Origin: Oxynema aestuarii AP17
Lineage (GTDB): Bacteria > Cyanobacteriota > Cyanobacteriia > Cyanobacteriales > Laspinemataceae
Reading direction: 5' to 3'
Assembly: GCF_012295525.1 (NCBI RefSeq)
Contig: NZ_CP051167.1
Coordinates: 3,393,501 to 3,457,500 of the forward strand
DNA: 64,000 nt
In this document: positions 19,164 to 37,492 of the stretch, in pieces
Numbering within the stretch: the first letter of the stretch is position 1
How the letters are laid out: the number at the start of each line of letters is the position of its first letter
Translations under genes and position numbers: made by a program
The notes under the pieces: generated by a model
Databases searched by the model: none
The model's input: only the letters and a program-made list of their open reading frames with translations
Told to the model about the DNA's origin: nothing

Positions 19164-22100
19164 GTGTTTTATCTGTCCTACGCCCAATTCCGCCATCCGA
19201 AGCTGGTATTTGGGCTGTGGTTATCCCTATTCGCTTTTTCTCCAGGGGCGATCGCTCAAGTGATTCCCGATGGGAGTTTGCCTCAAAACACGATCGTTAC
19301 TCCCCAGGGAAATCAAATGGCGATCGACGGCGGAACTCGATCGGGGGCTAATTTATTTCACAGTTTTGAAGAGTTTTCTCTCACGTCACAACAGTCGGCA
19401 ATTTTTAATAATGGTTTAGATATACAAAATATTTTTTCGCGAGTGACCGGGGGCAAGCTGTCCGAAATCGACGGCTTGTTACAAACCAAGGGAGGGGCAA
19501 ATTTATTTTTACTCAATCCGTCCGGAATCGTCTTCGGGCCGAATGCGCGCTTGAATGTGGGGGGGTCGTTCGTGGCGAGTTCGGCAGAGGCGATCGCCTT
19601 TGGGGACGGCAGTCAGTTCGGGGTGAGGCCGAACTCGGATCGCGCCTTACTGTCGATCGCCGTTCCCATCGGTTTGCAGTTCGGCAGCAATCCCGGGGCA
19701 ATCGTCCATCGCTCGATCGCGGCGGAGGGCAGTGGGAATCCGGCAGGGTTCCAAGTGCCTTTCGGTCGCACTTTGGGGATGATTGGCGGCGATGTAAGTA
19801 TAGAAGGGGGAAGGCTCGGCGCGCCGGAAGGACGAATCGAACTCGGTAGCGTCGGCGACAGTAGTTTTGTGGAGCTGGCGATCGCCGATTCGGGATGGAG
19901 CTTCGGTTATGAGGGAGTCGAACAGTGGGGGGCGATCGCGATCGGCGATGGCGCCCGCCTGAATACGAGCGGACGCGGCGGGGGAGCGATGCAACTCGTC
20001 GGCGGTCAAATTGCGATTAGTGGGGGTTCCCAACTGTTAGCCATTACGGCAGGCGATCGCGACGGCGAACCGATGACCCTACGGGGCAACGACAGCATCG
20101 CGATCGCGAGTAGATCCACCCTATCGACACGCACCCAAGGTGGGGGGAACGGCGGCGATCTGCGCTTGAGTGGCGCGAACTTAACCCTCGCGGACGGGGC
20201 GATCGTCGCGACGGGAACCGAGGGTGCCGGACGCGGGGGCGACCTGACGATCGAGGCCCCTGGAACGGTGCAGATAAGTGGAGCCGATCCGGATAACTTT
20301 ACGCTCTTAGTTGGGGATAGCACCGCAGATGGAGCCGCCGGAGCGATCGAAATGAACGCCGGAAACGTTTTTCTACAAGGAACGGCGGCAATTTCCAATC
20401 GAGCCTTGGGTAATGGCAACGGCGGCAATATCAGCATCAATACCCGGGAGGATTTTACGGCGATCGGGACGGGATTTGCATCGTTTGAAACGTTAATCGG
20501 CGCGGCACTCTCCGCGCAATTGCCACCAGACGCGTTGATTGGCGGCGTATTCACTGCCACAAACGGCGGCGGACAATCGGGAAAAATTATCATCGAGAGT
20601 GGCGGGTCGGTGCAGTTATTCAATGGCGCTTCAATCTTCAGTCCGACCTTTAGCGGCGCAGCCGGAGGGAACATTGAAGTCCGCGCCGACGGGGCGATCG
20701 CCGCCAACGCATCCGGCTTGCTGACCACCACGATCGGCAATAGTGGGGCGGCTGGCAATATTTTTTTAGACGCTACGCGGATCGCGATCGAGGATGGATC
20801 GGTCGTCTCTAGTGCTACCCTATTGGGATCCGGATCCGGTGGGGATGTGGTACTCAATGCCTCGGATACGGTAGAAATTGTGCGTAGCATTCCGGGGAAT
20901 TTATTGCCGACGGGGATTTTAAATAACTCGATTTTGGGAACGGGCGACGCAGGGGAGATCCGCATTTTGGCCCGACGGCTGACCATCCGTGAAGGTGGCT
21001 TGATCGTCAGTAATACCGGGGGATTAGTCGGAAGCGACGTGATTACTAGCGGGGGACGAGGGGGCGATATTATCATCAACACCAGTGAGTCGGTCGAAAT
21101 TTCCGGGATTTCTGCCGACGGCGTTGATACGAGTGGTCCGGGAACCACATCGTTTGGGGATTTACCTGCGGGAAATTTGATCGTGACCACGAAACGCATG
21201 GTCGTCGATGGCGGGGCGATCGTTTCGAGTGCGACCCTGGGCGCCGGGGATGGCGGAACCCTGACAATTCGTGCGTCTGAGTCTCTAGAGGTACGAGGGA
21301 CGTCCGCGATTACAGGTTTGCCGACGTCATTGACTACCTCTTCGGGACGGGCAGACATACCCCAATTGGAAGCGACGGGGAACGGGGGAGACCTGCGGAT
21401 TTTTACGCCGGAATTGCATGTTAGCGAGGGGGCGGCGTTGGACGTGCGTAGTTTGGGGTCTGGAGGGGCGGGAACTTTAGAAATTGCCGCACAAACGGTG
21501 CGCCTCGATCGCGGCGGCACCCTCAATGCGGCGACCGTAGCTGGAACTGGGGGTAATATCCAGGTGCAGGCGCCGGATTTTATTTTGCGCCGCGGCAGCC
21601 AGATTACCACGAATGCGGGGAATACCAATGGCGGCAACATCACGATCGCCACGGAAACCCTCGCCGCGATCGAAAATAGCGACATTACCGCCAACGCCCG
21701 CGAAGGTCGGGGGGGACGAGTCAGCATCGACGCCACGGGGATTTTTGGAACCGCATTTCGCGACCGACAAACCCCCGAAAGCGATATTACGGCGACGTCG
21801 GCACTCGGCCCGGAGTTTAGCGGCGTGGTCGAGATCGAAACTCCCGAGGCGGATCCGAGTGCGGGATTGGTAGAGTTCCCTTCGGAAGTTCGGGATGCGA
21901 GCAACCAAATTGCCACGGGTTGCGCCGCCGATAGCGGCAACGTGTTTGTGGTGACCGGACGCGGCGGCTTGCCGGAAAATCCAACTCAACTCTTCCAACG
22001 TCACCAGGCTTGGCGGGATTTGCGATCGCCCGCCACGGCTGAGCGCGAAGATTTCCGAGAGACTACCAACCCGGCGACTCCGGAAACCCAGAATCGGCGA

Positions 22101-22247
22101 GGGATGCTCCAAAGGAGCCCCTTCGCGATCGAGGCGACGGAATGGACCGTGGGTTCCCAGGGCGAAATTATCTTAAAAGCTGCCGGGAATGGTTCGTCGG
22201 ATCCTTCGCCTTTCTCTGCTTGTCCGGTGTCGCGAACGCCCGAGTAG
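19164..22247 (+). CDS. Filamentous-haemagglutinin-like exoprotein with TPS domain
   Basis: This is a 1027-aa secreted beta-helix protein of the two-partner secretion type. It starts at GTG 19164, with GGAG about 8 bases before. The signal peptide (LVFGLWLSLFAFSPGAIAQ) is followed by the TPS domain at about residues 33-140 (NTIVTPQGNQMAIDGGT, LFHSFEEFSL, GGANLFLLNPSGIVFG), which is recognised by an FhaC/ShlB-type outer-membrane pore. Residues about 200-880 are beta-helix repeats with recurrent GGDL, GGNI and SGGxI turns. The C-terminal module reads NQIATGCAAD, VVTGRGGLPENPTQLF, WRDLR, as in other cyanobacterial exoproteins. No FhaC partner is in the window. It heads the group CHAT-DUF928-CHASE2. 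Confidence 0.92.
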   Translation: MFYLSYAQFRHPKLVFGLWLSLFAFSPGAIAQVIPDGSLPQNTIVTPQGNQMAIDGGTRSGANLFHSFEEFSLTSQQSAIFNNGLDIQNIFSRVTGGKLSEIDGLLQTKGGANLFLLNPSGIVFGPNARLNVGGSFVASSAEAIAFGDGSQFGVRPNSDRALLSIAVPIGLQFGSNPGAIVHRSIAAEGSGNPAGFQVPFGRTLGMIGGDVSIEGGRLGAPEGRIELGSVGDSSFVELAIADSGWSFGYEGVEQWGAIAIGDGARLNTSGRGGGAMQLVGGQIAISGGSQLLAITAGDRDGEPMTLRGNDSIAIASRSTLSTRTQGGGNGGDLRLSGANLTLADGAIVATGTEGAGRGGDLTIEAPGTVQISGADPDNFTLLVGDSTADGAAGAIEMNAGNVFLQGTAAISNRALGNGNGGNISINTREDFTAIGTGFASFETLIGAALSAQLPPDALIGGVFTATNGGGQSGKIIIESGGSVQLFNGASIFSPTFSGAAGGNIEVRADGAIAANASGLLTTTIGNSGAAGNIFLDATRIAIEDGSVVSSATLLGSGSGGDVVLNASDTVEIVRSIPGNLLPTGILNNSILGTGDAGEIRILARRLTIREGGLIVSNTGGLVGSDVITSGGRGGDIIINTSESVEISGISADGVDTSGPGTTSFGDLPAGNLIVTTKRMVVDGGAIVSSATLGAGDGGTLTIRASESLEVRGTSAITGLPTSLTTSSGRADIPQLEATGNGGDLRIFTPELHVSEGAALDVRSLGSGGAGTLEIAAQTVRLDRGGTLNAATVAGTGGNIQVQAPDFILRRGSQITTNAGNTNGGNITIATETLAAIENSDITANAREGRGGRVSIDATGIFGTAFRDRQTPESDITATSALGPEFSGVVEIETPEADPSAGLVEFPSEVRDASNQIATGCAADSGNVFVVTGRGGLPENPTQLFQRHQAWRDLRSPATAEREDFRETTNPATPETQNRRGMLQRSPFAIEATEWTVGSQGEIILKAAGNGSSDPSPFSACPVSRTPE
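22103..22128. repeat. Palindromic repeat inside the exoprotein gene
   Basis: By my comparison 24 of 26 bases match the copy at 49187-49212 (GATGCTCC, small hairpin, then CTTCGCGA). Here it is translated in frame as part of the variable C-terminal tail (GMLQRSPFAIE), so the repeat adds residues without breaking the gene. Confidence 0.6.
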
Positions 22248-22586
22248 GCGCGCCTTACAAGGGATCTCAACTCAAACAGTAACAAGCGATCGGCTCGCCA
22301 TTGCAATTCCCTCGCTCAATTTGTTACGCCTTTCTATTGACAAAATGACTAAAATATGGTCAAAAAGCCGACAAGGGGAATAGAGCGTTTTAAATTAACT
22401 CGGTAACAGTTTCAACATCCAGGTTAGGCGATTTGGCGGATGACGACTCGCCAAAAAAGTAACAAAATCGAACTAGATTAGATCGAAAAGGTAACAACGA
22501 CAAGGCGGTCAGACCCATCATTTCTGGTGTAACTTAACGGGTGAAGGGGTTACCCAATAAAGAGCAGTCAATTCTAGTGGTAATTC

Positions 22587-22677
22587 GAGGCTTGCCCGTC
22601 TGGTATTCGTCATTCTAATAGAGTGACGATAATCCGTGGGGGGAATACAGAAGGGCAAGCCTCATCCCTTTTTTTAA
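22587..22677 (+). ncRNA. Candidate structured RNA: nested stems ending in a T-tract
   Basis: Three nested pairings are visible. The outer 11-bp stem pairs 22587-22597 (GAGGCTTGCCC) with 22653-22663. The middle GTATTC at 22603-22608 pairs with 22643-22648. The inner 9-bp stem pairs 22608-22616 with 22620-22628 around a 3-base loop. The outer stem is followed by ATCCC and seven T, as in an intrinsic terminator. It lies 340 bases after the exoprotein gene. It could be the 3' end of a small RNA, an elaborate terminator of the exoprotein mRNA, or a leader for the genes downstream. Confidence 0.5.
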
Positions 22678-22944
22678 AGACATGTTTTGTTTTTAAAGAA
22701 AGTTTTGAAAGGCCATTGAGGCGATCGCCGCGTCATATCGCCCCCCTGTTTTGCAATCGAGTAAGCGGTCTCTGTGTGAAAATGCTGTGTGAAAATGCAT
22801 AGTTACCAGGCGGCCAGGATGCCCGAACCACCAAAAACCGGATGATTTAATGGTGCTTTTAGGAACATCACTGGTTTGGCTGATGCAGTTTCAATGTCTA
22901 AAAGCTTACCATCTACACTAGCCAGTTGAAGTACCGCCCCGAAA

Positions 22945-23172
22945 GTGAATCCCACGTCCACTTTGGTCGAACTGCTCTCCGAGGTGAACGACGTGAGCGA
23001 TCCGAGCGATCGCATGGCCACGGGACGTGCGGCGGATGAAGCCAATGTCTTCACGGTTACCGGACGGGGCGGTTTGCCGGAAAACCCGACTCGACGATGG
23101 AACGATCCAGTACTAGTGTGGCGAGATTTTCGCCCGGTGATTCCGGAACGATCGCGCCGGGAATCGGACTGA
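22945..23172 (+). pseudogene. Decayed C-terminal fragment of a haemagglutinin-like exoprotein
   Basis: The 75-aa frame reads STLVELLSEVNDVSDPSDRM, then ATGRAADEANVFTVTGRGGLPENPTRRWNDPVLVWRDFRP in continuous register with the end of the upstream exoprotein (LVEFPSEVRDASNQIATGCAAD, VVTGRGGLPENPTQLF, WRDLR). The conserved Cys is replaced by Arg and no TPS or beta-helix part precedes it. It is therefore a remnant of a second exoprotein gene or a partial duplication, most of it deleted. Divergence at many positions suggests the event is old. Confidence 0.75.
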
Positions 23173-23323
23173 GGATCGGCGTCGGGAACGGGGGTGAACC
23201 CAATGGAAGCCAGCCATGGGTCCGTCAACCCCCGAGGTCAAATCGAATGAGCGATCGATTCCGGTCGGGGCGATCCTTGTGCTCCCCCATCCGTCGTCAC
23301 CCACTGTAAGGATAAATAAACCG

Positions 23324-25966
23324 ATGGAAAGATGGCGCACGCGGCGCACAAAAGTCTATCGAGCTTTGTGTTTGGCGCTTTTAAGCTTTGCGATCGTCAC
23401 GATCGCCCTCCCCAGTACGACCCGACCGCTTGCGGCGGTTCCGGCGGCGATCCTCCAACAGAGGCGCTTCGCGATCGCCCAAGCCCGTAACGACGCCCAA
23501 TCCCTGCTCGATCGCGGTCAACGGGCTTACGAGGCGGGACAGTTTCTCGAAGCGGCGACGGCGTGGGAAGCCGCCGCGAAGGAGTTCGCCCGTCGCTCCC
23601 AGACCCCCGGGGAAACCGTAGGGGCAGTTCGCGAACCGCCTCTACTCTGGATTTATCTCGGCCAAGTCTACCAAGATTTAGGTCGCTGGTCCGACGCCGA
23701 AACCGCGATCGCCCGCGCCTTCGACTTACTCGACACGGACCTCGACGGGTCTCGCGACGCCTTACTCGCCCGCGCCTTCAACGCCCGAGGCAGTCTGCAA
23801 CTCGCCCTCGGTCAACCGGAAAACGCTCTAGACAGTTGGGAACGGGCCGAAGCGGCGTATGCGGCGGTCGGCGACGAGATCGGCGAACTCGGCAGTCGCA
23901 TCGATCGCGCTCAAGCCTTGCAAACCTTGGGTATGTACCGCCGATCGCGCGAATTACTCGAAACCACCGCCCAGCAGTTACAAAATCGCCCGGATTCGGC
24001 GGTTAAAGTCGCCGGATTGCAGAGTTTGGGACTCGTTTTACAAGCGGTTAACGAAGACGCGCGAGCGCGGGAGGTCTTGCAAGAAAGCCTCGCCGTCGCT
24101 CGCCGCACGGGGGAATCATCCCGCCTGAGCGACATTCTCACCAGTCTCGCCCATAGCGAGCGCGCCCTCGACCGTCCGGACGCCGCCGCCTCCCTCTATC
24201 GAGAAGCGGCGAGGGTGGCGACGGACCCGATCGCGATCGCCTCGGCCCAACTTAGCTTACTCGCCTTAGCCGTAGAGACCGCCGACTGGGCACAAGCCCG
24301 CGATCTGTGGCCGCCATTGGGCGATCGCCTCGCCGCGTTGCCCCCGAGTCGTCCGTCGATTTACGCCAAGGTCAACCTCTCGGAAACCCTCTTACAAGGC
24401 CAACAAAACGCCCCCTCAGCCCAACCCCTGCTCGATCGCGCCGATTACGAACCCCTCGCCCGTTTGCTCGCCCAAGGGGTGCGCGAGGCTCGCGATCTCG
24501 GCGACGTGCGCGCGGAATCCTTCGCCCTCGGACAATTTGGTAAACTCTATTTCCAAGGGGGACAAGTCGATCGCGCCCGGGAGTTGACCACAAGAGCCCT
24601 GGCCCTCGCCGCCCAAGTCAACGCCGCCGATCTCTCGGCCCGGTGGCAAACCCAACTCGGGGAAATTTTCAAAACCGACAACGACCTCCCAGAGGCGATC
24701 GCCGCCTACCGTGAAGCCGTGGCAACCCTGCAATCCCTGCGCGCCGACTTGGTCGGGATCGATCCGGACGTCCAGTTTTCGTTTCAAGAAAGCGTCGAAC
24801 CCGTCTATCGCGAACTCGTCGGTTTGCTGCTGGCGTCGAATCCATCTCAAGACGACCTCAAACAAGCCCGCGACACGATCGAAGCATTGCAACTGGCAGA
24901 ACTCGACAACTTCTTCCGCGAGGCTTGTCTGGATACGGAATCGGTGGAGATCGATCGCATCGACCCGACGGCTGCGGCCATTTATCCGATTATCTTACGC
25001 GATCGCCTCGAAGTCATTCTCTCGATTCCCGGCGAACCCCTCGCCCACTACGCCACCCCCTTGACCGGGGAACAGGTCGAAACCACCCTCGACGAATTAC
25101 TCGAAACCCTCAATCCCTTTTTCGACGATCGCGATCGCCTGCGCCTCTCCCAACAAGTCTACGACTGGTTGATTCGTCCGGCCCGCGATCGACTCGACGC
25201 CGCCAACATCAAAACCCTGGTCTTCGTTCTCGACGGCGCCTTTCGGAATTTACCGATGTCGGTACTTTACGACGGCGAGCAGTATTTAGTTGAAACATAC
25301 GCGATCGCCGTCACTCCCGGGTTTCAACTGTTCGCCCCGCGCGCAATTTCGGCGGTAGATCTCAAAGCGTTAACTGGGGGACTGACCGAAGCCCGTCAAG
25401 GATTTGCGGCCCTGCCTGCAGTCAAACGAGAAGTTGAAGAAATCGCCTCGGAACTGCCGACCAAAATTTATCTCGATCGCGACTTTACCGCCAAAAATTT
25501 GCAAGATCGCATCCAATCTTCTAGCTTTCCAATCGTTCATTTAGCCACCCACGGACAATTTAGTTCCAATCCCGAGGAAACCTTTATTTTGACCTGGGAT
25601 GGCAAAATTCAAGTCCGCGAATTTGAAGCGTTATTGCACTCGAATCGTAGCGAAGTACTCAACCCGGTGGAACTGTTAATCCTCAGCGCCTGTCAAACTG
25701 CCGCCGGGGACAAACGCGCCGCCCTCGGTCTGGCGGGGGTGGCGGTGCGATCGGGCGCGGGCAGTACCTTGGCGACGTTGTGGTCGGTTAAAGATGAATC
25801 GACGGCAGAATTGATGGCTAACTTTTACGACCGTCTCGGCGATCGCACCGTCCCTATTGGTAAAGCGGAGGCGTTACGACAAGCCCAACTTTCTCTATTA
25901 AAAGAGGAAAAATATCGGCATCCTTTTTATTGGGCGCCGTTTGTTCTCGTGGGGAATTGGTTGTAA
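23324..25966 (+). CDS. Secreted TPR-CHAT domain protein (caspase-like protease family)
   Basis: I chose ATG 23324 (AAGGA upstream) over the longer frame from 23216, because it opens a signal peptide (RALCLALLSFAIVTIALPS). The product is 880 aa. Residues about 50-480 are TPR-like helices (LLDRGQRAYEAGQFLEAATA, LWIYLGQVYQDLGRWSDAE and similar). The C-terminal 350 residues form a CHAT domain with catalytic His743 in VHLATHGQF and Cys790 in LILSACQTA, followed by GLAGVAVRSGAGSTLATLWSV. CHAT enzymes are caspase-like cysteine proteases. In cyanobacteria, proteins like this are often found beside TPS exoproteins and DUF928 proteins, as here. Its substrate is unknown; processing or quality control of the exoprotein is a plausible inference. 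Confidence 0.88.
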   Translation: MERWRTRRTKVYRALCLALLSFAIVTIALPSTTRPLAAVPAAILQQRRFAIAQARNDAQSLLDRGQRAYEAGQFLEAATAWEAAAKEFARRSQTPGETVGAVREPPLLWIYLGQVYQDLGRWSDAETAIARAFDLLDTDLDGSRDALLARAFNARGSLQLALGQPENALDSWERAEAAYAAVGDEIGELGSRIDRAQALQTLGMYRRSRELLETTAQQLQNRPDSAVKVAGLQSLGLVLQAVNEDARAREVLQESLAVARRTGESSRLSDILTSLAHSERALDRPDAAASLYREAARVATDPIAIASAQLSLLALAVETADWAQARDLWPPLGDRLAALPPSRPSIYAKVNLSETLLQGQQNAPSAQPLLDRADYEPLARLLAQGVREARDLGDVRAESFALGQFGKLYFQGGQVDRARELTTRALALAAQVNAADLSARWQTQLGEIFKTDNDLPEAIAAYREAVATLQSLRADLVGIDPDVQFSFQESVEPVYRELVGLLLASNPSQDDLKQARDTIEALQLAELDNFFREACLDTESVEIDRIDPTAAAIYPIILRDRLEVILSIPGEPLAHYATPLTGEQVETTLDELLETLNPFFDDRDRLRLSQQVYDWLIRPARDRLDAANIKTLVFVLDGAFRNLPMSVLYDGEQYLVETYAIAVTPGFQLFAPRAISAVDLKALTGGLTEARQGFAALPAVKREVEEIASELPTKIYLDRDFTAKNLQDRIQSSSFPIVHLATHGQFSSNPEETFILTWDGKIQVREFEALLHSNRSEVLNPVELLILSACQTAAGDKRAALGLAGVAVRSGAGSTLATLWSVKDESTAELMANFYDRLGDRTVPIGKAEALRQAQLSLLKEEKYRHPFYWAPFVLVGNWL

Positions 25967-26092
25967 TTTTTACATTGCTCGATTGAAAGTTAATCCAAAT
26001 TTCATTTAACTTCAGAGCAGAAGAATTACAATAGGAAATAAACGCCAACCCGGGGCATTTACGAAAATTTAGTGTTGAAAAGGGAAACAAGA

Positions 26093-26890
26093 ATGAACCG
26101 TCAAACAAGATCGATATTTCTGAAAATCTCTTGCCTGACCCTCGCCGTACAAGCGCTGGGGTTACCACTGCTGACCCCGCGCGCGATCGCCGGATCCGAT
26201 CCGGTCGATCCGAGGGCGAGTCTGGAAGCGGCCATGAGAGCGGGCATCACCTTCGAGCCGCCCAAACAAGGGATGCCGACAGATACCGCCGGAGGGGCCT
26301 CCCGCGATGCTGGATGCGCCCGCGAAGATATCAGCGCCACGGGCTGCGTCACTCCGTTGATGCCGGAAAATAACTACGGTTTGACGGTTTCCGAACGTCC
26401 GACGTTCTACCTCTACGTCCCCGAAACCGATGCGAAAGAGGTATTTTTTAGCTTAGTTGACGAAAATCGCAATCATCACTACCAAGCGAAGCTTCCCCTC
26501 GACCGTCAAGAAGGAATTATCGGGATTACTCTCCCCGAAAATGCTCCAGCTTTAGCCGTCGATAAGACTTATCAATGGACCGTAATTTTGATTGGCGATC
26601 GCGGTTTGCGACCGGACAGCCCGGGGGTTCAAGGCACGGTGCGCCGGGTCGAACTCGATGCAACTCTAGCCCGTCAAATTGAAGACGCATCCCTGGCGGA
26701 ACGAGCGGCTTTATATGGTGAAAATGGGATTTGGTTTGAAGCGCTTTCGAGCTTAGCCACCCTCGAAAGGAATGGAGAATCGAGCGCGATCGCCTCGACT
26801 TCCGAACTCGAAAATCCCAATAATATCTGGCAAGAATTCCTTTCTTCTGTCGGTTTACAAGCGATCGCCGCCAAGCCGATTTTAAATTAG
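26093..26890 (+). CDS. Secreted DUF928 protein
   Basis: I prefer ATG 26093 (AGGG upstream) to the GTG at 26072. The product is 265 aa with a signal peptide (SIFLKISCLTLAVQALGLPL). The DUF928 region follows: CAREDISATGCVTPLMPENNYGLTVSERPTFYLYVPE, a beta-sandwich-like middle, KTYQWTVILIGD, and the terminal helices with AERAALYGENGIWFEALSSLA. Function is unknown. It lies 126 bases after the CHAT gene on the same strand, a recurring cyanobacterial arrangement from memory. Two Cys (GCARED and TGC) may form a disulfide. Confidence 0.85.
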   Translation: MNRQTRSIFLKISCLTLAVQALGLPLLTPRAIAGSDPVDPRASLEAAMRAGITFEPPKQGMPTDTAGGASRDAGCAREDISATGCVTPLMPENNYGLTVSERPTFYLYVPETDAKEVFFSLVDENRNHHYQAKLPLDRQEGIIGITLPENAPALAVDKTYQWTVILIGDRGLRPDSPGVQGTVRRVELDATLARQIEDASLAERAALYGENGIWFEALSSLATLERNGESSAIASTSELENPNNIWQEFLSSVGLQAIAAKPILN

Positions 26891-27000
26891 ATCGGCGTCG
26901 CTTATGTTTTCGATTTCAACTTCGATCGCCCGTCCTCATCGGCACCTTCGAGGAAACGAACTCGTTTCCAGGCGATCGAAGCTTTTTGCGTCTCCAACAA

Positions 27001-27055
27001 GTGAACTACCGCTATTGAATCGGAGATTACAATAGCGGCTTCCTACCCAACAGAT
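27001..27055 (-). mobile_element. Right-end hairpin of an IS605-family element (omega-RNA scaffold end)
   Basis: CCGCTATTG at 27009-27017 pairs with CAATAGCGG at 27030-27038. On the minus strand this lies just past the tnpB stop and ends GGTAGTTCAC, the form typical of IS200/IS605 right ends. In intact elements this part forms the 3' scaffold of the omega-RNA, with the guide taken from flanking DNA (here leftward of 27001). Confidence 0.65.
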
Positions 27056-27082
27056 TGCCCAATCGTAGATTTCTTGCGTCCT

Positions 27083-27924
27083 CTACGCTTCGGTCTTACA
27101 CCTGGACAGTAGGCTTGGCCCCGCGTCCCGCAGGTCAAGAGTCGTAGTCCCTCTTCTGGCGAGGTTGATAGCTGCATTGAGATCGCGATCGTGACTCGTC
27201 CCACAGCTAGAACAAGTCCAATTTCTGACATCTAGTGGCAGACTATCGATTTGATTCAAGCAAACGTTGCAGGTTTTAGAAGAGGGGAAGAATCTATCGA
27301 CCTCAACATAGACTTTCCCTTCCTGTTCGGCTTTGTACTTGAGCATGGTCAAAAACATTTCCCAACCGACTATCCAAGGTCTACGCCGACGGCTTTTCCC
27401 TCGGTGGATGAATCTGGATTGGGTTTTCCATCTTCAAAGAGAATAGAGGCAAAATATTGGTCGCAGCGATTTTTAGTGACCGTAACAGTTTTGAGTTTGC
27501 CTTCTATTGGTCGATGAACAACCGCTTTAACTTCCCCAATCTTCGGTAGCTTCAAGGCGGTCTCCAGCACCTTGACATTTTGGGGATACTGGATGGATTG
27601 TTTATCGTGCTTGGACTTGAATCGCGGATACCTGGCCCGTTTCTCAAAGAAGTTGTTAAAAGCGGTTCCCAGGTTAGTACAAACCTGTTGAAGACACTGC
27701 GAGTAGGTCAGCTTTAACCACTCATACTCTTGCTTGAGGCTGGGAATCTGTTTCTTGATGTCGTAACTAGATAGTCCCTTCCCAGTCTCTTTGTAGGTTT
27801 GATTCATCAAGTTCAGACCATAGTTCCACAGCCATCTGCAATGGCCGAAGGATTGCTACAGCGATTGCTTCTGCTGCTCATTTGGGTATAGTTCGATCGT
27901 GACGACTTTGAGGATTAAGGTAAA
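27083..27924 (-). pseudogene. tnpB: Broken IS605-type tnpB (RNA-guided nuclease), internally deleted
   Basis: On the minus strand the N-terminal part is recognisable (IELYPNEQQKQSL, GHCRWLWNYGLNLMNQTY, YEWLKLTYSQCLQQV, FEKRARYPRFKSK) up to the RuvC-I motif VGVDLG, where a stop follows at 27370-27372. In another frame only about 11 bases later the C-terminal part resumes (WEMFLTMLKYKAEQEGK, the zinc finger CNVC-CSSC, RuvC-III DRDLNAAINLA). The middle, including RuvC-II, is deleted. A second lesion is an in-frame TAG at 27856-27858. No tnpA is present. The element sits between the DUF928 and CHASE2 genes in opposite orientation. Confidence 0.9.
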
Positions 27925-27962
27925 TTAGATTCACCATAAACACTCTACCCTAAGTTACTGCT

Positions 27963-28012
27963 GCAATTCATGTCACGCTTCAAATCTCTGACTGAAGCGT
28001 GACATGAATTGC
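27963..28012. repeat. 20-bp perfect inverted repeat
   Basis: GCAATTCATGTCACGCTTCA at 27963-27982 and its exact complement at 27993-28012 flank a 10-base loop. It lies between the dead tnpB and the CHASE2 gene. It may be the left-end structure of the element, a tiny insertion with perfect arms, or a strong hairpin in the leader of the CHASE2 mRNA. No T-tract follows. Confidence 0.7.
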
Positions 28013-28062
28013 GGATTTGGCTAAATCCTGGATAGGCAATACCTTTGGTGAAAAGGGTAATC

Positions 28063-28127
28063 AGAAACTGGGTTGAGTCGTATCCGTTCGGTCGGTTCGT
28101 TACAATTTTTGTATCAACCCAGTTTCT
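28063..28127 (+). promoter_or_regulatory. Inverted repeat in the leader of the CHASE2 cyclase gene
   Basis: AGAAACTGGGTTGA at 28063-28076 is exactly complementary to 28114-28127, with 37 bases between that include ACAATTTTTG. The right arm ends 24 bases before the start codon, so folding would place a stem next to the ribosome-binding region. It could be an attenuator, a translational switch or a pair of operator half-sites. Confidence 0.5.
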
Positions 28128-28151
28128 CCTGTCCTTTCGGGATGCCTGTCA

Positions 28152-30683
28152 ATGTGGCCGAAGCTCAAACCGCGAAGTTGGCAATGGCGCGGTATTTTAA
28201 TTAGCGCCCCCAGTGTTGCCGCCTTAGTGATTGGCGTTCACACTGCCGGATTGTTCCAACTTCTCGAATGGATGGCTCTCGACAGTTTTTTTCGCTGGCG
28301 TCCCCTCGAAGCCCCCGACCCTCGCATTGTCGTCGTCACGATCGACGAAGCCGATATCACTTATGCCGGACAGTGGCCGATTCCGGATGCGGTCTTGGCG
28401 CAGTTGCTCGAAAATTTAAACAGTTATCGACCTCGGGCGATCGGGATGGACTTGTACCGCGATTTGCCCGTCCCTCCCGGACACGATCGCCTCGTGGAGG
28501 TACTCGAAGCGATGCCTAATTTAATTGGGGTCGAGAAAGTCGCGGGCGATCGTGTCGGACCGCCCGCTATTTTAGCCGAACAAGGCCAAGTGGGACTCGC
28601 CGATCTGGTCTTAGATGCCGATGGCAAAGTCCGGCGGGGTCTGCTTTCGGTCAAGCCGGACGACGGCGAAACGAAATTGGGTTTGGCGACGCGGGTGAGT
28701 TTGATGTATTTAGAAGCGGAAGGGATCGCTCTGGAGTTGGCCGATCCCGAAAAGATGCATTTGAAATTGGGAAAAGCGCTGTTCGTCCCCTTTGCAGAAA
28801 ATGACGGCAGTTACGTGCGCGCCGATGCCGGAGGCTATCAGATTTTACTCAACTATCGCGGTCCGCAAACCAACTTCACCACGGTTTCGATGACCGACAT
28901 TCTCGAAAAACGCGCCGACCCGGAGATCCTGCGCGATCGCCTCGTCTTGATCGGCGCCACCGGACAAAGTTTAAACGACCTCTTTTTTACCCCCTACACG
29001 AACAGTTTGTGGGGGGTTCCCAAGCGGATGCCCGGGGTGGTGATTCACGCCAATTTAGCCAGTCAAATTCTTGCCGGGGCTTTAGACGGACGCCCGTTTT
29101 TGCAAGTATGGAACGACCCGGCAGAATGGTTGTGGACCTTGGCGTGGTCTTTTGTCGGGGCGAGTGGCGGTTGGGGGTTTTTACAAAGCAATTGTTTTAA
29201 AAATAATTTATTTTTTCGCGGCGTCGTCCTCGGCGGGGGGATCCTCGTCGGTTGCGCGATCGCCGTCGGTAGCAGTTATTTTGCCTTTCTCCATTCCTGG
29301 TGGATTCCTACCGTTCCTCCCGTCCTCGCCTTGAGTGGGTCGGCGATCGCGATCGCGGGCTATCACAGCCGTACCCTGCAGCGTCAGAGCGATCGCCGAC
29401 TCGCCAAATTTCTCGAAGCTATGCCGATTGCCGTCGCCGTCCTCGATCGCGACGGCAAGCCCTATTATGCCAATCAAACTGCCCAAGCTCTCCTCGGCAA
29501 AGGGGCGATCGGCCATGTCACGATCGAACAACTCTCCGAGTTTTATAATTACTATCGTGCCGGAACTGACACATTGTATCCCTGGAACGAATTACCGATC
29601 GTGCGAGCGCTCTACGGCGAGTCCATTGCTGCCGAGGATATCGAAATTCGTACCGACGATCGCGTCACGCCGATTTCGGCGATGGGAATGCCGATTTTTG
29701 ACGAAGATAATCAAGTCGCCTACGCCTTAGTCACCTTTCAAGATATCACCGAACGGCGACAGGCCGAAGCCGAACGCGAACAGTTCACTAAAGAACTCTT
29801 CGACCTCAACCAAAACTTAGAAAAAGCCTTAGATGCCGAACTCGAATTAACCGACGCTTACGGTCGCTTCGTCCCCCACCAGTTTCTGTATTTCCTCGGT
29901 TACGAAAGCATTACCGATGTCAAATTAGGGGAAGCGGTTCAAAAGGAAATGTCGATTTTATTTACTGACATTCGTAATTTTACCACACTCTCGGAAAGTA
30001 TGAATCCCGAGGATAATTTTAAATTTATTAATGCCTTTCTCTCGCGCATGGAACCCGCGATCGCCGAAAATAACGGCTTTATCGATAAATATATCGGCGA
30101 TGCGATTATGGCCCTATTTAGCGGCAGTGCGGACGAGTCGGTGAGAGCCGCGATTTCCATGCTTCAACGCCTTCAAGAATATAACTTAACCCGAGGCCGA
30201 CCGGGACGCCCCAAAATCCAAATTGGCATCGGTATCAACACCGGATCCCTGATGCTCGGCACCGTCGGCGGTTCCAACCGCATGGACGGAACAGTCATCG
30301 GAGATGCGGTTAATTTAGCCGCCCGCATCGAAAGTCTCACCAAAGATTACGGCGTCGCTTTGCTCATTTCCAATCAAACGTTTGTCGCCCTCGACAATCC
30401 CTCGGAATACCACGTCCGTTTGATCGATCGCGTCCGGGTCAAAGGTAAATCTCAATTAGTCACCGTCTACGAGGTGTTTGATGCCGATGCTCCGGATATA
30501 AAACAAGGAAAACTGGAAACTAAAACCATTTTTGAACAAGCTTTATTGTTATATAATTTGGGGTCTTATCTCGAAGCCGCGCACTTATTTCAAAACTGCT
30601 TAAATGTCAATCATCAAGATAATGTCGCCCGGATTTATTTAAAACGCTGTCATTGTGCGGAAAGTCAAAGTTCGGTATCGTAA
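28152..30683 (+). CDS. CHASE2-PAS-adenylate/guanylate cyclase, membrane receptor
   Basis: The protein has 843 aa. It has a membrane segment near 13-33, an extracytoplasmic CHASE2 sensor at about 40-325 (RIVVVTIDEADI, RAIGMDLYRDLPVPPGHDRL, DRLVLIGATGQSLNDLF), three membrane segments at about 325-410, a PAS domain at about 412-535 (AVAVLDRDGKPYYANQTA), and a class III cyclase domain at about 595-750. Metal-binding Asp606 (LFTDIRNFT) and Asp650 (YIGDAIMALF) are present, with Lys646 as the usual adenine-selecting residue and TVIGDAVNLAARIE following. It therefore looks like an active adenylate cyclase making cAMP in response to an external ligand. The C-terminal 50 residues look TPR-like. It follows the DUF928 gene, separated only by the tnpB remnant. 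Confidence 0.92.
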   Translation: MWPKLKPRSWQWRGILISAPSVAALVIGVHTAGLFQLLEWMALDSFFRWRPLEAPDPRIVVVTIDEADITYAGQWPIPDAVLAQLLENLNSYRPRAIGMDLYRDLPVPPGHDRLVEVLEAMPNLIGVEKVAGDRVGPPAILAEQGQVGLADLVLDADGKVRRGLLSVKPDDGETKLGLATRVSLMYLEAEGIALELADPEKMHLKLGKALFVPFAENDGSYVRADAGGYQILLNYRGPQTNFTTVSMTDILEKRADPEILRDRLVLIGATGQSLNDLFFTPYTNSLWGVPKRMPGVVIHANLASQILAGALDGRPFLQVWNDPAEWLWTLAWSFVGASGGWGFLQSNCFKNNLFFRGVVLGGGILVGCAIAVGSSYFAFLHSWWIPTVPPVLALSGSAIAIAGYHSRTLQRQSDRRLAKFLEAMPIAVAVLDRDGKPYYANQTAQALLGKGAIGHVTIEQLSEFYNYYRAGTDTLYPWNELPIVRALYGESIAAEDIEIRTDDRVTPISAMGMPIFDEDNQVAYALVTFQDITERRQAEAEREQFTKELFDLNQNLEKALDAELELTDAYGRFVPHQFLYFLGYESITDVKLGEAVQKEMSILFTDIRNFTTLSESMNPEDNFKFINAFLSRMEPAIAENNGFIDKYIGDAIMALFSGSADESVRAAISMLQRLQEYNLTRGRPGRPKIQIGIGINTGSLMLGTVGGSNRMDGTVIGDAVNLAARIESLTKDYGVALLISNQTFVALDNPSEYHVRLIDRVRVKGKSQLVTVYEVFDADAPDIKQGKLETKTIFEQALLLYNLGSYLEAAHLFQNCLNVNHQDNVARIYLKRCHCAESQSSVS

Positions 30684-32638: not shown

Positions 32639-32799
32639 CCGATCTCGGTGACGGTTCGTGCAGGGGAAATTGACCGGGATCGAGCGCCGTCAGTACGATC
32701 CCAATTCTTCAAGGATCCGCGATCGCGATCGGGAATCCTTGAGTGGGGTTGACCCCGGTCAGCCCCGTTCACAGCGTAATTGATTTAGGAGATGCAATC

Positions 32800-35088
32800 A
32801 TGCCTGAAGGCGTTCTCAGCGACGACGTCAATCAAATTGGTCCTCCCCCGGAAACGGATTTTTTTGATGCGGATTTTTATCGACTGGCTAATCCCGATTT
32901 ACTCGGGCTCACTCCAGAACAGTTAGAAGTTCATTTCCGCGAACGGGCGATCGCCGAAGGACGCTCGTTTATTCCCGTTTACGACGCCCAATTTTATCGC
33001 ACCAACAACCCGGATTTAGCCGGATTGAGCGATCGCGCCCTCTTCGATCACTTCATTAATATCGGTTTGGGGGAAGGTCGTAAATTTTCCCCGGTTTTCG
33101 ATATCGACTTCTACCGTCAAAATCTCTTACTCACCGAAAACGGCGCCGATATTATCGAACAGCTCACCCCGGAACCGATCCCGGAAAATCCGGCCTTAGA
33201 ATTATTTGCCGACCCTCAAACGATCGTGACGCGATCGCCCTCGCTCAACGAAAACTTATATAAATTATTCCTCGAAAGCGAATTAGGCGTTACCACCGAT
33301 TTAGAAGAAGAAACCGGATTGAATCCGGAAGATATTACCGAAGAAATCGATTATTCTCCCTTCTTCGATCCCCTCTTTTATCTCAACAACAATCCCGACC
33401 TCGCCGAAGCCTTCGGCACCAATACCGAGCAAGCCCTACAACATTTCGTCACGCGGGGCATTAACGAACCGAGACGGGCTTCGCTGATTTTCGACCCAAT
33501 TTTCTACATCCGTACCAATCCCGACCTCGAAGCTGCGGGATTGGCGACGCCGAAAGGGGCGTTATTTCATTACGAAATTAACGGTTTGCCCGAAGGTAGA
33601 CGCCCGTCTTTATTCTTCGATCCACAATTTTATGTAGCCAGTAACCCGGACTTGCGCGAGCGGGGGTTGGACAATGAGGATTTAATCGATAATTTTATCC
33701 TCGTCGGGTTAGAACAGGAGCGGCGATCGTCGTTATTTTTCGACCCGAGAGCGATTAATTCTTTGATTATTCCTCAAACTACGCAAACGGAAGAAGAAGC
33801 GCAACAAGCTGACGACGAAACGCCCCCCAATTCGACTGAGAATTTATTAAATGGGGACTATCAGAAATGGCCGACGCCGATCGGTGGGATCTTAACCTAT
33901 AGTTTCGTGACTCAAGCGAGTGCAGTTCAGTACGAAGGGACTGAAAGTGGGGTGGGCGAGGTCAACGAAGCGATTAAAAATAACGTGCGGCAGATTATGA
34001 ATGAATATAATCAGGTGCTGCCGTTCGATTTAATTGAAGTCGCCGATCGCCCCCCGAATACGGGACAAATTCGCATTTTATTTGCAGATAATCCCAATTA
34101 CGCTTACAGCTACGCGCCGGGATTGGGAACGGGGGGCGATATCGTCCTGAGTCGGAATTTTGAAACCGATCCGAATCGCTCGTTTTCTCAAGGGGCGGGC
34201 AATTTCGGCTACCAGCGTCTGGTTCACGAAATCGGTCACGCCCTCGGGTTGCGCCAACCGAACGACTACACCGGGTTTGCGTTCGCCGAACGCCCCACCT
34301 TCCCGGCGGGAGGGTCGGGGTTGCCTTTTAACGAAGACAACAGCACGAATACGGCGATGAGTTTTAATATTGCCGGGGTCGGGGCGAGTACGCCGATGAC
34401 TTATGACGTGAGGGCGTTGCAGTTTCTTTACGGGTTTAACGATGCTAATTTGGGCGACGATGTTTATCGTTTTGACGGGGCGAGTTTTATCGGGGTCAAG
34501 CAGACGATTTGGGATGCGGGTGGCGTCGATACGTTTGATTTTTCGGAATTGCCCCCGAGTGACAGTTATTTCTTCGATCTGAATGAGGGGGGTCAGAGTA
34601 CGAATCAAACGGCGCTCAATGCGGCGACCTATCAGGCGATTAACGATCCGAGTGGGGCGACTTATGCGGCGAGTAGTTATGCGACGCGGGTCGCTTACGG
34701 AACGACGATCGAGAATTTAATTGGGTCGGCGGTCAATGATGAAATTTTGGGGAATAATGCGGCGAACCGCATCGAGGGCGGTTCCGGGGCAGACCGGATT
34801 ACGGGAAGTCGCGGCGCCGACGTGATTGCGGGGGGGTCGGGAACGGATACGTTTATTTTTGCGCCGGGTGACGGGGGCGCGGCGGTCTCCGACGGGGATA
34901 CGATTCTCGATTTTACGGTGGGCGAGGATCGGATCGGGTTGAGTTCGCCGTTGACGTTTGAGGCGATCGCGATCCAGGCGTCGGGAGGGAATTCTTTGTT
35001 GCGGATTGCCAATACGGGGGAAATTCTGGCGACGTTGGTCGGGGTGAGTCCGGGTCAGTTAGGGGCCAGTGATTTTATCGGGGTGTGA
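32800..35088 (+). CDS. RTX-type secreted protein with NPD repeats and M10-like metallopeptidase domain
   Basis: I chose ATG 32800 (AGGAG 8 bases upstream), giving 762 aa. There are three parts. Residues 15-340 carry about six repeats of the form F-D-x-x-F-Y-x-x-N-P-D-L followed by HFxxxGxxEGR, known from cyanobacterial calcium-binding secreted proteins. At about 370-600 is a serralysin-like (M10) domain: RLVHEIGHALGL with His476, Glu477 and His480, and a Met-turn-like NTAMSFN. At about 640-700 are RTX nonapeptides (GGSGADRITGSRGADVIAGGSGTD), then the usual serralysin C-terminal block ending LGASDFIGV. The third zinc ligand of HExxHxxGxxH is Gln (LGLRQPNDY). No signal peptide, so type I secretion is inferred. 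Confidence 0.85.
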   Translation: MPEGVLSDDVNQIGPPPETDFFDADFYRLANPDLLGLTPEQLEVHFRERAIAEGRSFIPVYDAQFYRTNNPDLAGLSDRALFDHFINIGLGEGRKFSPVFDIDFYRQNLLLTENGADIIEQLTPEPIPENPALELFADPQTIVTRSPSLNENLYKLFLESELGVTTDLEEETGLNPEDITEEIDYSPFFDPLFYLNNNPDLAEAFGTNTEQALQHFVTRGINEPRRASLIFDPIFYIRTNPDLEAAGLATPKGALFHYEINGLPEGRRPSLFFDPQFYVASNPDLRERGLDNEDLIDNFILVGLEQERRSSLFFDPRAINSLIIPQTTQTEEEAQQADDETPPNSTENLLNGDYQKWPTPIGGILTYSFVTQASAVQYEGTESGVGEVNEAIKNNVRQIMNEYNQVLPFDLIEVADRPPNTGQIRILFADNPNYAYSYAPGLGTGGDIVLSRNFETDPNRSFSQGAGNFGYQRLVHEIGHALGLRQPNDYTGFAFAERPTFPAGGSGLPFNEDNSTNTAMSFNIAGVGASTPMTYDVRALQFLYGFNDANLGDDVYRFDGASFIGVKQTIWDAGGVDTFDFSELPPSDSYFFDLNEGGQSTNQTALNAATYQAINDPSGATYAASSYATRVAYGTTIENLIGSAVNDEILGNNAANRIEGGSGADRITGSRGADVIAGGSGTDTFIFAPGDGGAAVSDGDTILDFTVGEDRIGLSSPLTFEAIAIQASGGNSLLRIANTGEILATLVGVSPGQLGASDFIGV

Positions 35089-36715: not shown

Positions 36716-37492
36716 ATGAAACTAGAAAAACTGTTATTAACTACAGTGGCAGCCAGCACGCTAGCCAGTGTGGTTTCTGTCCTACCAGCGCAAGCTACCA
36801 ACTTGTTCGGTACGGACGGGATTTTGTTTGACGCGGATACTTCTGTCAAATTTACCTTTAACGAATCTCACGGTTACTACAAATCGACCATCGGCGTCTG
36901 GGAAGTCGGAACTGAGAATTATACGAATCTGTTTTCCGAGCAAAGTCGTTTTGATAGTGGCGTCGATGCTTATGCCACTGACAACTTAGGAACCTGTGGC
37001 GGCGTCATTTCTTCCGCGCTATGTGAGACAAGCTTCTTATTTGAAGCCGGAAAAGAATACGCTCTCTATATCGAAAGCACCCCCGACGGTCATCCCGATT
37101 ACCCGAAACTGTTCTCGACCACTTCCTTGAACGACGGTAGTATTTTCACCCAACAAGCGAAGTTCTTCCAAGGTACGTCGGAACTCGACACTTACCGAGC
37201 TGGAAATTACAACGACATCCGTACCGCAGACGGTTACGATCCGAACAACAGTATCTACGGCAACCTAGCCACCAACAATTCGCAATCTGGCGATCCGTTT
37301 AGCGGTCCGGTCTTGATTGCTCTGGAAGATTCGGGCAATTATAGCGGACATAGAGACTACAACGATTTCTTGATGACTGCGCAAGCGGTTCCGCAAGCTT
37401 CCGTTCCCGAACCCGCGACGTTAATGGGTTTGGGCGTTATCGCCGGATTGATGGGTTTGAGCCGTCGTCGTAAAGAAAGCGAAGTGTCTTAA
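36716..37492 (+). CDS. PEP-CTERM sorting-domain protein
   Basis: This is a 258-aa exported protein. The signal peptide (KLEKLLLTTVAASTLASVVS, cleaved after AQA) is followed by a beta-rich body with two Cys (NLGTCGGVISSALCE). The end of the body, ALEDSGNYSGHRDYNDFLMTAQ, resembles DUF4114 proteins. The tail is a classic PEP-CTERM: VPEPATLMGLGVIAGLMGLSRRRK, with the VPEP motif, a membrane helix and an Arg cluster. Such proteins are sorted by an exosortase and are linked to exopolysaccharide-producing bacteria, which fits the polysaccharide locus just downstream. Body function unknown. Confidence 0.9.
   Translation: MKLEKLLLTTVAASTLASVVSVLPAQATNLFGTDGILFDADTSVKFTFNESHGYYKSTIGVWEVGTENYTNLFSEQSRFDSGVDAYATDNLGTCGGVISSALCETSFLFEAGKEYALYIESTPDGHPDYPKLFSTTSLNDGSIFTQQAKFFQGTSELDTYRAGNYNDIRTADGYDPNNSIYGNLATNNSQSGDPFSGPVLIALEDSGNYSGHRDYNDFLMTAQAVPQASVPEPATLMGLGVIAGLMGLSRRRKESEVS

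What the first reader, a model, noticed from the sequence alone, without database searches (positions are those of the whole stretch)
19164..30683. Exoprotein - CHAT protease - DUF928 - CHASE2 cyclase locus
Four plus-strand genes combine a secreted adhesin-like beta-helix protein, a secreted caspase-like CHAT protease with TPR repeats, a secreted DUF928 protein of unknown function, and a membrane adenylate cyclase with an external CHASE2 sensor. Seen: all three secreted products have signal peptides and the CHAT His/Cys and cyclase Asp/Lys residues are intact. Known: CHAT domains are caspase-like proteases, CHASE2 is an extracellular sensor. Inference: CHAT cleaves or matures the exoprotein, DUF928 helps, and CHASE2 reports the surface state as cAMP.
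Basis: partly seen in the sequence, partly recalled or inferred. Interest (0 to 1): 0.75.

Follow-up and report, generated by a model that had tools for sequence, protein, structure and literature searches.

The report
Adhesin–protease–receptor signalling cassette in cyanobacteria
The four genes are one copy of a gene cassette that recurs across multicellular cyanobacteria (nine full sets in this genome alone) and appears to link a giant cell-surface protein, through a caspase-like protease and a small periplasmic protein, to a receptor that signals inside the cell; I found no published description of it.

Summary
The four genes (two-partner-secretion (TPS) exoprotein, exported TPR-CHAT protease, exported DUF928 protein, CHASE2-PAS-cyclase) form a conserved cassette. 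This genome holds 20 DUF928 genes, and nine loci have all four families. Of 100 DUF928 loci from other cyanobacteria, 68 have CHASE2 within 10 kb (3.5 expected). Of 41 long CHAT-centred loci in named species, 29 have all four genes, mostly in the window's order.

(1) Separately encoded exoproteins end in an unnamed 'GRGG' domain holding an invariant Cys pair, like the HMW1/CdrA periplasmic hook. (2) In ten genomes, 76 TPS exoproteins carry GRGG, 36 carry a fused CHAT, and none carries both; the fusions form one clade. (3) DUF928 is an Ig-like domain on a disordered stalk with an invariant Arg motif, repeated up to 11 times.

Receptor outputs vary (cyclase, histidine kinase, GGDEF, PP2C), so cAMP is only this copy's output.

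Best reading: an outside-in envelope signalling system in which CHAT acts on the exoprotein's periplasmic tail and DUF928 relays to CHASE2. The linkage is shown; the mechanism is inferred.

The parts
19164..22247 (+). TPS exoprotein (TpsA-like, FHA-type N-domain, beta-helix repeats), 1027 aa, signal peptide
   Evidence: PF05860 8.8e-60 and TIGR01901; sequence
21795..22211 (+). C-terminal GRGG domain of the exoprotein (FVVTGRGGLPENP ... EATEW); the only two Cys of the protein are here (C920) and just after it (C1020)
   Evidence: HMM match in own genome 5e-40; Cys positions; conservation
22936..23313 (+). decayed C-terminus of a second exoprotein (GRGG relic, two in-frame TGA, first Cys lost)
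   Evidence: 2.0e-17, 2 TGA; translation; other loci carry tandem exoprotein genes here
23216..25966 (+). TPR-CHAT caspase-like protease, exported (N-terminal hydrophobic stretch), dyad H779/C826
   Evidence: PF12770 5e-61 at aa 643-914 plus TPRs; dyad
26072..26890 (+). DUF928 protein, signal peptide, likely start ATG 26093
   Evidence: PF06051 2e-54; model pLDDT 86, pTM 0.81
26291..26305 (+). GGASR motif in the disordered DUF928 stalk (Arg invariant in the family, tandemly repeated in paralogs)
27100..27880 (-). decayed IS200/IS605 TnpB (OrfB) separating DUF928 from the receptor gene; interruption, not part of the cassette
   Evidence: zinc-finger-like CSSCGTSHDRDLNAAINLARRG and KAVGVDLG across broken frames; no Pfam match for the longest ORF
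28152..30683 (+). CHASE2 - TMs - PAS - class III adenylate cyclase receptor, 843 aa
   Evidence: PF05226 3e-72, PF08448, PF00211 5e-20

Best explanation
The locus is one of about nine full copies, in this genome, of a cyanobacterial trans-envelope signalling cassette. A TPS exoprotein is exported and displays its beta-helix outside the cell. Its C-terminal GRGG domain, closed by a Cys-Cys bond, stays in the periplasm in the pore of a TpsB transporter, as described for HMW1, HxuA and CdrA. The exported TPR-CHAT protease docks on, and cleaves or is switched by, this tail, so that contact with or pull on the exoprotein, or a failure of its secretion, changes protease activity in the periplasm. 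The DUF928 protein (Ig-like domain on a flexible Arg-motif stalk) is the periplasmic relay that engages the CHASE2 ectodomain. CHASE2 then sets whichever cytoplasmic output that copy carries: adenylate cyclase here, elsewhere a histidine kinase, diguanylate cyclase, PP2C phosphatase, CHAT domain, or a linked sigma factor. Shown: families, linkage, architecture, export signals, conserved residues, output diversity. Inferred: the disulfide, the periplasmic position of the tail, CHAT cleaving the tail, DUF928 binding CHASE2, and the outside-in direction.
For: Linkage: 9 full sets in this genome; 68/100 external DUF928 loci with CHASE2 within 9.9 kb against 3.5 expected, CHAT 45, TPS 38, TpsB 19, all four 24; 29/41 long CHAT-centred loci with all four. 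Fusions: TPS+CHAT in one ORF 36 times in ten genomes; CHAT+CHASE2 in 3 of 56 receptors; TPS+GRGG+TpsB in two genomes from different families, which puts GRGG on the POTRA (periplasmic) side. Tail: 105 of 109 C-complete separate exoproteins carry GRGG and the 4 exceptions are broken genes; 103/105 have exactly two Cys in the last 160 residues; 100/105 have no Cys between residue 61 and that tail. The CHAT dyad is intact in nearly all complete cassette CHATs, and 55 of 59 have signal-like N-termini. TPR-GRGG distances correlate within the genome (r 0.68, p 0.013, n 8), while the exoprotein's N-domain does not correlate with CHAT (r 0). DUF928-CHASE2 r 0.46, p 0.0014 within the genome. Outputs vary while the input side is constant.
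Against: No biochemical data. GRGG-bearing exoproteins also occur without a CHAT gene nearby (for example L104, L165, L167, L179), so the tail may only be a TpsB anchor. The GRGG/CHAT exclusivity reflects essentially one evolutionary event: the CHAT-fused TPS domains form a single clade (100/100). The TPR-GRGG correlation rests on 8 loci. Of the 100 external DUF928 loci, 32 lack CHASE2 and 55 lack CHAT within 10 kb, so the parts also act apart. The GRGG model is poor (pLDDT 64). CHAT domains are not always proteolytic.
Confidence: 0.42

Rival explanations
1. Protease-activated ligand: the main CHAT substrate is DUF928. The exoprotein tail activates CHAT, which clips the DUF928 stalk after its invariant Arg, and the freed Ig-like domain binds CHASE2.
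For: Arg is invariant (59/59 non-gap rows) inside a stalk predicted to be disordered. The GG[AS][ST]R unit is tandemly repeated 2-11 times in 40/193 proteins, more often where CHAT is in the locus (34/123 v 6/70, p 0.0015). CHAT and DUF928 genes are adjacent. The GRGG motif also has an invariant basic residue between Gly. Orthocaspases are known to prefer Arg (own knowledge).
Against: The motif is also kept in DUF928 from loci without CHAT (50/70). Cassette CHAT specificity is untested. Repeat-rich proteins are partly one clade, so the p value is inflated.
Confidence: 0.25
2. Inside-out control, as in LapD-LapG-CdrA: the receptor and DUF928 hold or release CHAT in response to a cytoplasmic state, and CHAT then releases the exoprotein from the surface.
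For: Same anatomy as CdrA (Cys-hook TPS adhesin, periplasmic protease, inner-membrane receptor; PMC4694147, PMC11898600, PMC5422565). Some receptors carry GGDEF and EAL.
Against: Most receptors carry complete output enzymes (cyclase, kinase, PP2C) rather than degenerate binding domains, which fits outside-in flow.
Confidence: 0.13
3. Co-regulated neighbours without direct contact: CHAT matures the exoprotein, while DUF928-CHASE2 is a separate sensor unit that merely controls expression of the locus.
For: DUF928-CHASE2 is the tightest unit and often occurs without TPS or CHAT. The DUF928-TPS and CHAT-TPS N-domain correlations are nil within the genome.
Against: The recurring order TPS-CHAT-DUF928-CHASE2, with short gaps, in many genera; CHAT-CHASE2 fusions.
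Confidence: 0.15
4. Kin-recognition or cell-death cassette: exoprotein contact triggers the caspase-like CHAT to kill or arrest the cell.
For: CHAT is caspase-like; several exoprotein genes stand in tandem before one CHAT (15 loci), as in polymorphic contact systems.
Against: CHAT is exported; there is no toxin or immunity pair; output domains are ordinary signalling enzymes.
Confidence: 0.05

Closest known systems
CdrA-CdrB with LapG-LapD (Pseudomonas aeruginosa)
   Same: TPS adhesin held at the surface by a C-terminal cysteine hook, a periplasmic cysteine protease that trims the tail, an inner-membrane receptor linked to a second messenger (PMC4694147, PMC11898600, PMC5422565)
   Different: Protease is CHAT (clan CD), not a transglutaminase-like LapG; receptor is CHASE2 with many different outputs; an extra DUF928 relay; exoprotein and receptor genes lie together; many paralogs per genome
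HMW1/HxuA C-terminal anchor of TPS exoproteins
   Same: Cys pair near the C-terminus predicted to lock the tail in the TpsB pore (PMC5422565, citing Buscher et al. 2006)
   Different: GRGG domain has its own conserved motifs and no solved relative was found by sequence; CHAT fusion replaces it in one clade
CHASE2 receptors, e.g. Dgc2 of Leptolyngbya boryana
   Same: CHASE2-PAS-output enzyme; Dgc2 (CHASE2-PAS-GGDEF) suppresses motility and biofilm formation; CHASE2 ligands unknown (PMC10581220)
   Different: No DUF928, CHAT or exoprotein partner is mentioned there
CHASE2 + DUF928 + WD40 gene cluster in Nostoc punctiforme
   Same: CHASE2 and DUF928 side by side; signalling suggested (PMC5587647)
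   Different: Taken there as specific to one species; no CHAT or exoprotein named in the passage
Orthocaspases / TPR-CHAT proteins (HetF, Csx29)
   Same: His-Cys clan CD fold with TPRs
   Different: Those act in the cytoplasm (own knowledge); cassette CHATs carry export signals

Membership tests
Two-partner secretion exoprotein (TpsA) | N-terminal TPS domain after a Sec signal peptide | tested here: met
   PF05860 aa 31-277, 8.8e-60; hydrophobic signal
Two-partner secretion exoprotein (TpsA) | cognate TpsB (ShlB/FhaC) transporter | tested here: inconclusive
   none in the window; about 4 TpsB-like genes elsewhere for 19 TPS ORFs; TpsB near 19/100 external DUF928 loci
HMW1/CdrA-type C-terminal anchor | conserved C-terminal Cys pair | tested here: met
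   103/105 complete GRGG exoproteins have exactly two Cys in the last 160 aa
HMW1/CdrA-type C-terminal anchor | disulfide formed, tail retained in the TpsB pore | not testable with these tools
   supported only by TPS-GRGG-TpsB fusions in L088 and L207
CHAT protease | CHAT domain with His-Cys dyad | tested here: met
   PF12770 5e-61, H779/C826
CHAT protease | proteolytic activity | not testable with these tools
   no assay
DUF928 (PF06051) | profile match above curated cut-off | tested here: met
   184 bits v 26
CHASE2 adenylate cyclase receptor | CHASE2 ectodomain, TMs, class III cyclase with metal Asp and substrate Lys | tested here: met
   PF05226, PF00211; FTDI, KYIGDA, VIGDAVNLAAR
LapD-LapG-CdrA system | LapG (transglutaminase-like) protease and LapD (degenerate GGDEF-EAL) receptor | tested here: not met
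   protease is CHAT and receptor is CHASE2-cyclase; works-like claim only
CdiA-type contact toxin system | variable C-terminal toxin and immunity gene | tested here: not met
   C-terminus is the conserved GRGG domain, followed by CHAT

The most novel reading that the evidence does not exclude
A bacterial protease-gated receptor pathway in which an extracellular giant protein, tethered by its disulfide-closed tail, controls an exported caspase-like protease that processes a soluble Ig-like ligand (DUF928) through its repeated Arg motifs, and the ligand switches CHASE2 receptors with interchangeable outputs. Many parallel copies in one cell would give filamentous cyanobacteria a family of surface-to-cytoplasm channels and would identify the long-sought CHASE2 ligand.
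Probability: 0.3. Interest if true: 0.9.

Novelty: new variant of a known kind. Interest (0 to 1): 0.74.

Why it matters
CHASE2 ligands are unknown, DUF928 has no assigned function, and cyanobacteria carry dozens of CHAT proteins without known substrates. A widespread cassette that links all three to a secreted exoprotein turns these open questions into pairwise tests: does CHAT cut the GRGG tail or the DUF928 stalk, and does DUF928 bind CHASE2. A CHASE2 enzyme has already been shown to control motility and biofilm formation in a filamentous cyanobacterium (PMC10581220).

Tried and rejected
Degenerate-pattern search with the DUF928 alignment failed, being too divergent; CHAT was used instead. 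PDB sequence search gave nothing for DUF928 (E 0.86) or GRGG, and for CHAT only TPR matches. The GRGG AlphaFold2 model is too weak to interpret, so it was not searched by fold. For DUF928, Foldseek gives generic Ig/FnIII/CBM sandwiches at best E 2e-4, TM 0.38: a fold class, not a function; a carbohydrate-binding role is not claimed. I first read the perfect GRGG/CHAT exclusivity (p 2e-20) as many independent replacements, but the tree shows one fusion clade, so that p value is not independent evidence. DUF1822 plus a sigma-like gene follow the receptor in some loci, too few to be core. Literature: no paper in the held library joins CHAT with CHASE2, or CHAT with filamentous hemagglutinin and cyanobacteria; DUF928 appears in one paper. 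Subscription journals are not covered.

Full report
OBSERVATION. The four genes are real, intact and correctly placed. P0001 has a TPS domain and repeats; P0002 has TPRs and CHAT with H779/C826; P0003 is DUF928; P0004 is CHASE2-PAS-class III cyclase with the expected catalytic motifs. The exported proteins have signal-like N-termini. Two interruptions lie inside the block: a decayed second exoprotein tail at about 22936-23313 and a decayed IS200/IS605 TnpB at about 27100-27880 on the minus strand.

IS IT A UNIT? Within this genome (6.36 Mb, one contig) there are 20 DUF928, 47 CHAT, 22 CHASE2 and 19 TPS matches. Sixteen of 20 DUF928 lie within 10 kb of a CHASE2 (1.3 expected), 13 of a CHAT (2.5) and 9 of a TPS (1.1). 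Nine loci have all four families. Across 146 genomes of the phylum DUF928 occurs in 49, all of which have CHASE2; copy numbers correlate (rho 0.91 over 68 genomes of the order and class). In 100 external DUF928 loci, CHASE2 lies within 9.9 kb in 68 (3.5 expected), CHAT in 45, TPS in 38, TpsB in 19; all four in 24 loci from 13 genera and 8 families. Starting instead from CHAT, 41 loci of at least 20 kb from named cyanobacteria (Microcoleus, Nostoc, Phormidium, Moorena, Oscillatoria, Crocosphaera and others) have DUF928 in 36, CHASE2 in 35, TPS in 35 and all four in 29. In 24 of all 80 CHAT-centred loci the four genes stand next to each other in the window's order on one strand; 10 have two or more exoprotein genes before CHAT.

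THE EXOPROTEIN TAIL. All but four C-complete, separately encoded TPS exoproteins (105 of 109) end in a domain of about 130 residues that matched no Pfam model in P0001: consensus C-x(about 11)-[F]-x-x-T-G-[RK]-G-G-[LV]-P-x-x-P ... E-A-x-G-W ... L-V-A ... C. The four exceptions are broken genes. Exactly two Cys lie in the last 160 residues in 103/105, and no Cys lies between residue 61 and that tail in 100/105. In known TPS systems such a Cys pair makes a periplasmic loop that locks the tail in the TpsB pore (HMW1, HxuA: PMC5422565; CdrA 'cysteine hook': PMC11898600). In two genomes the exoprotein is fused, GRGG first, to its own POTRA/TpsB barrel (L088, L207), which puts the GRGG domain at the periplasmic face.

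CHAT AND THE TAIL. In ten genomes 126 TPS frames divide into 76 with GRGG and no CHAT, 36 fused to CHAT and without GRGG, none with both, and 14 with neither, of which 10 are short fragments. This reads as 'CHAT in cis, or a tail for CHAT in trans', but the CHAT-fused TPS domains form a single clade (100/100), so it is one evolutionary event, not 36. Distances of the CHAT protein's TPR part and of GRGG correlate inside this genome (r 0.68, p 0.013, n 8) and in the external set (r 0.51, p 0.001, not corrected for species), whereas the exoprotein N-domain does not correlate with CHAT in this genome.

DUF928. AlphaFold2 gives a confident seven-stranded sandwich with a helical tail after a disordered N-terminal stalk (pLDDT 86, pTM 0.81). 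Best solved matches are generic Ig/FnIII/CBM domains. The stalk holds an invariant Arg (59 of 59 non-gap rows) in GG[AG][ST]R. In 40 of 193 proteins a unit of the type F-x-P-P-x-x-G-A-P-x-x-x-x-G-G-A-S-R-G is tandemly repeated 2-11 times, more often where CHAT is in the locus (34/123 v 6/70, p 0.0015, uncorrected for kinship). An invariant residue in a disordered, multiplied segment suggests a processing or docking site. DUF928 is closest, in gene order and in within-genome co-variation, to CHASE2 (r 0.46, p 0.0014, n 16).

THE RECEPTOR. Of 56 cassette CHASE2 proteins 20 end in a cyclase, 19 in a histidine kinase (16 receptors also match a receiver domain), 6 have GGDEF, 2 EAL, 4 SpoIIE/PP2C, 3 CHAT, 4 match AAA_35; some loci continue with DUF1822 and an ECF-sigma-like gene. 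The input side is constant and the output interchangeable, which argues that information flows inward.

MECHANISM. All four products can meet in the periplasm: exoprotein tail, exported CHAT, exported DUF928, CHASE2 ectodomain. I favour an outside-in system in which the tail controls or is cut by CHAT and DUF928 relays to CHASE2 (0.42). The main rival is a protease-activated DUF928 ligand (0.25). LapG-LapD-CdrA is the nearest known way of working, but the protease and receptor families differ, so it is not a member.

NOVELTY. The literature search found no description of the cassette; the nearest is a one-species note of CHASE2 beside DUF928 (PMC5587647). Dgc2, a CHASE2-PAS-GGDEF enzyme, controls motility and biofilm in Leptolyngbya with unknown ligand (PMC10581220). 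Subscription literature was not searchable.

Noticed in passing
window 22936-23313: Decayed second exoprotein C-terminus (GRGG relic) between the exoprotein and CHAT; elsewhere 2-3 tandem exoprotein genes sit here, and L305 9662-9985 is an exoprotein shrunk to 107 aa by internal deletion, suggesting birth and death of exoprotein copies.
   Followed up: partly
L088:2518-7095 and L207:2715-7040: One ORF holds TPS exoprotein, GRGG domain, POTRA and TpsB barrel: a single-chain two-partner secretion arrangement found in two genomes of different families.
   Followed up: partly
L096:7417-8568, L265, L200, L261, L183: DUF928 stalks with 5-11 tandem GAPxQxxGGASRG-type repeats; copy number differs between homologs.
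   Followed up: partly
L088:13030-16318, L171:3848-6789, L225:12949-15308: DUF1822 gene followed by an ECF-sigma-like gene beside the CHASE2 receptor: possible transcriptional output.
   Followed up: partly
window 27100-27880 (-): Decayed IS200/IS605 TnpB inside the block.
   Followed up: yes
window 32743-35088, 36716-37492: Serralysin-like RTX protein and a PEP-CTERM protein downstream of the locus.
   Followed up: no
G002:C1:1390078-1421392: Five CHAT genes with near-equal match scores in about 31 kb in a relative: a tandem CHAT array, with no TPS match listed there.
   Followed up: no
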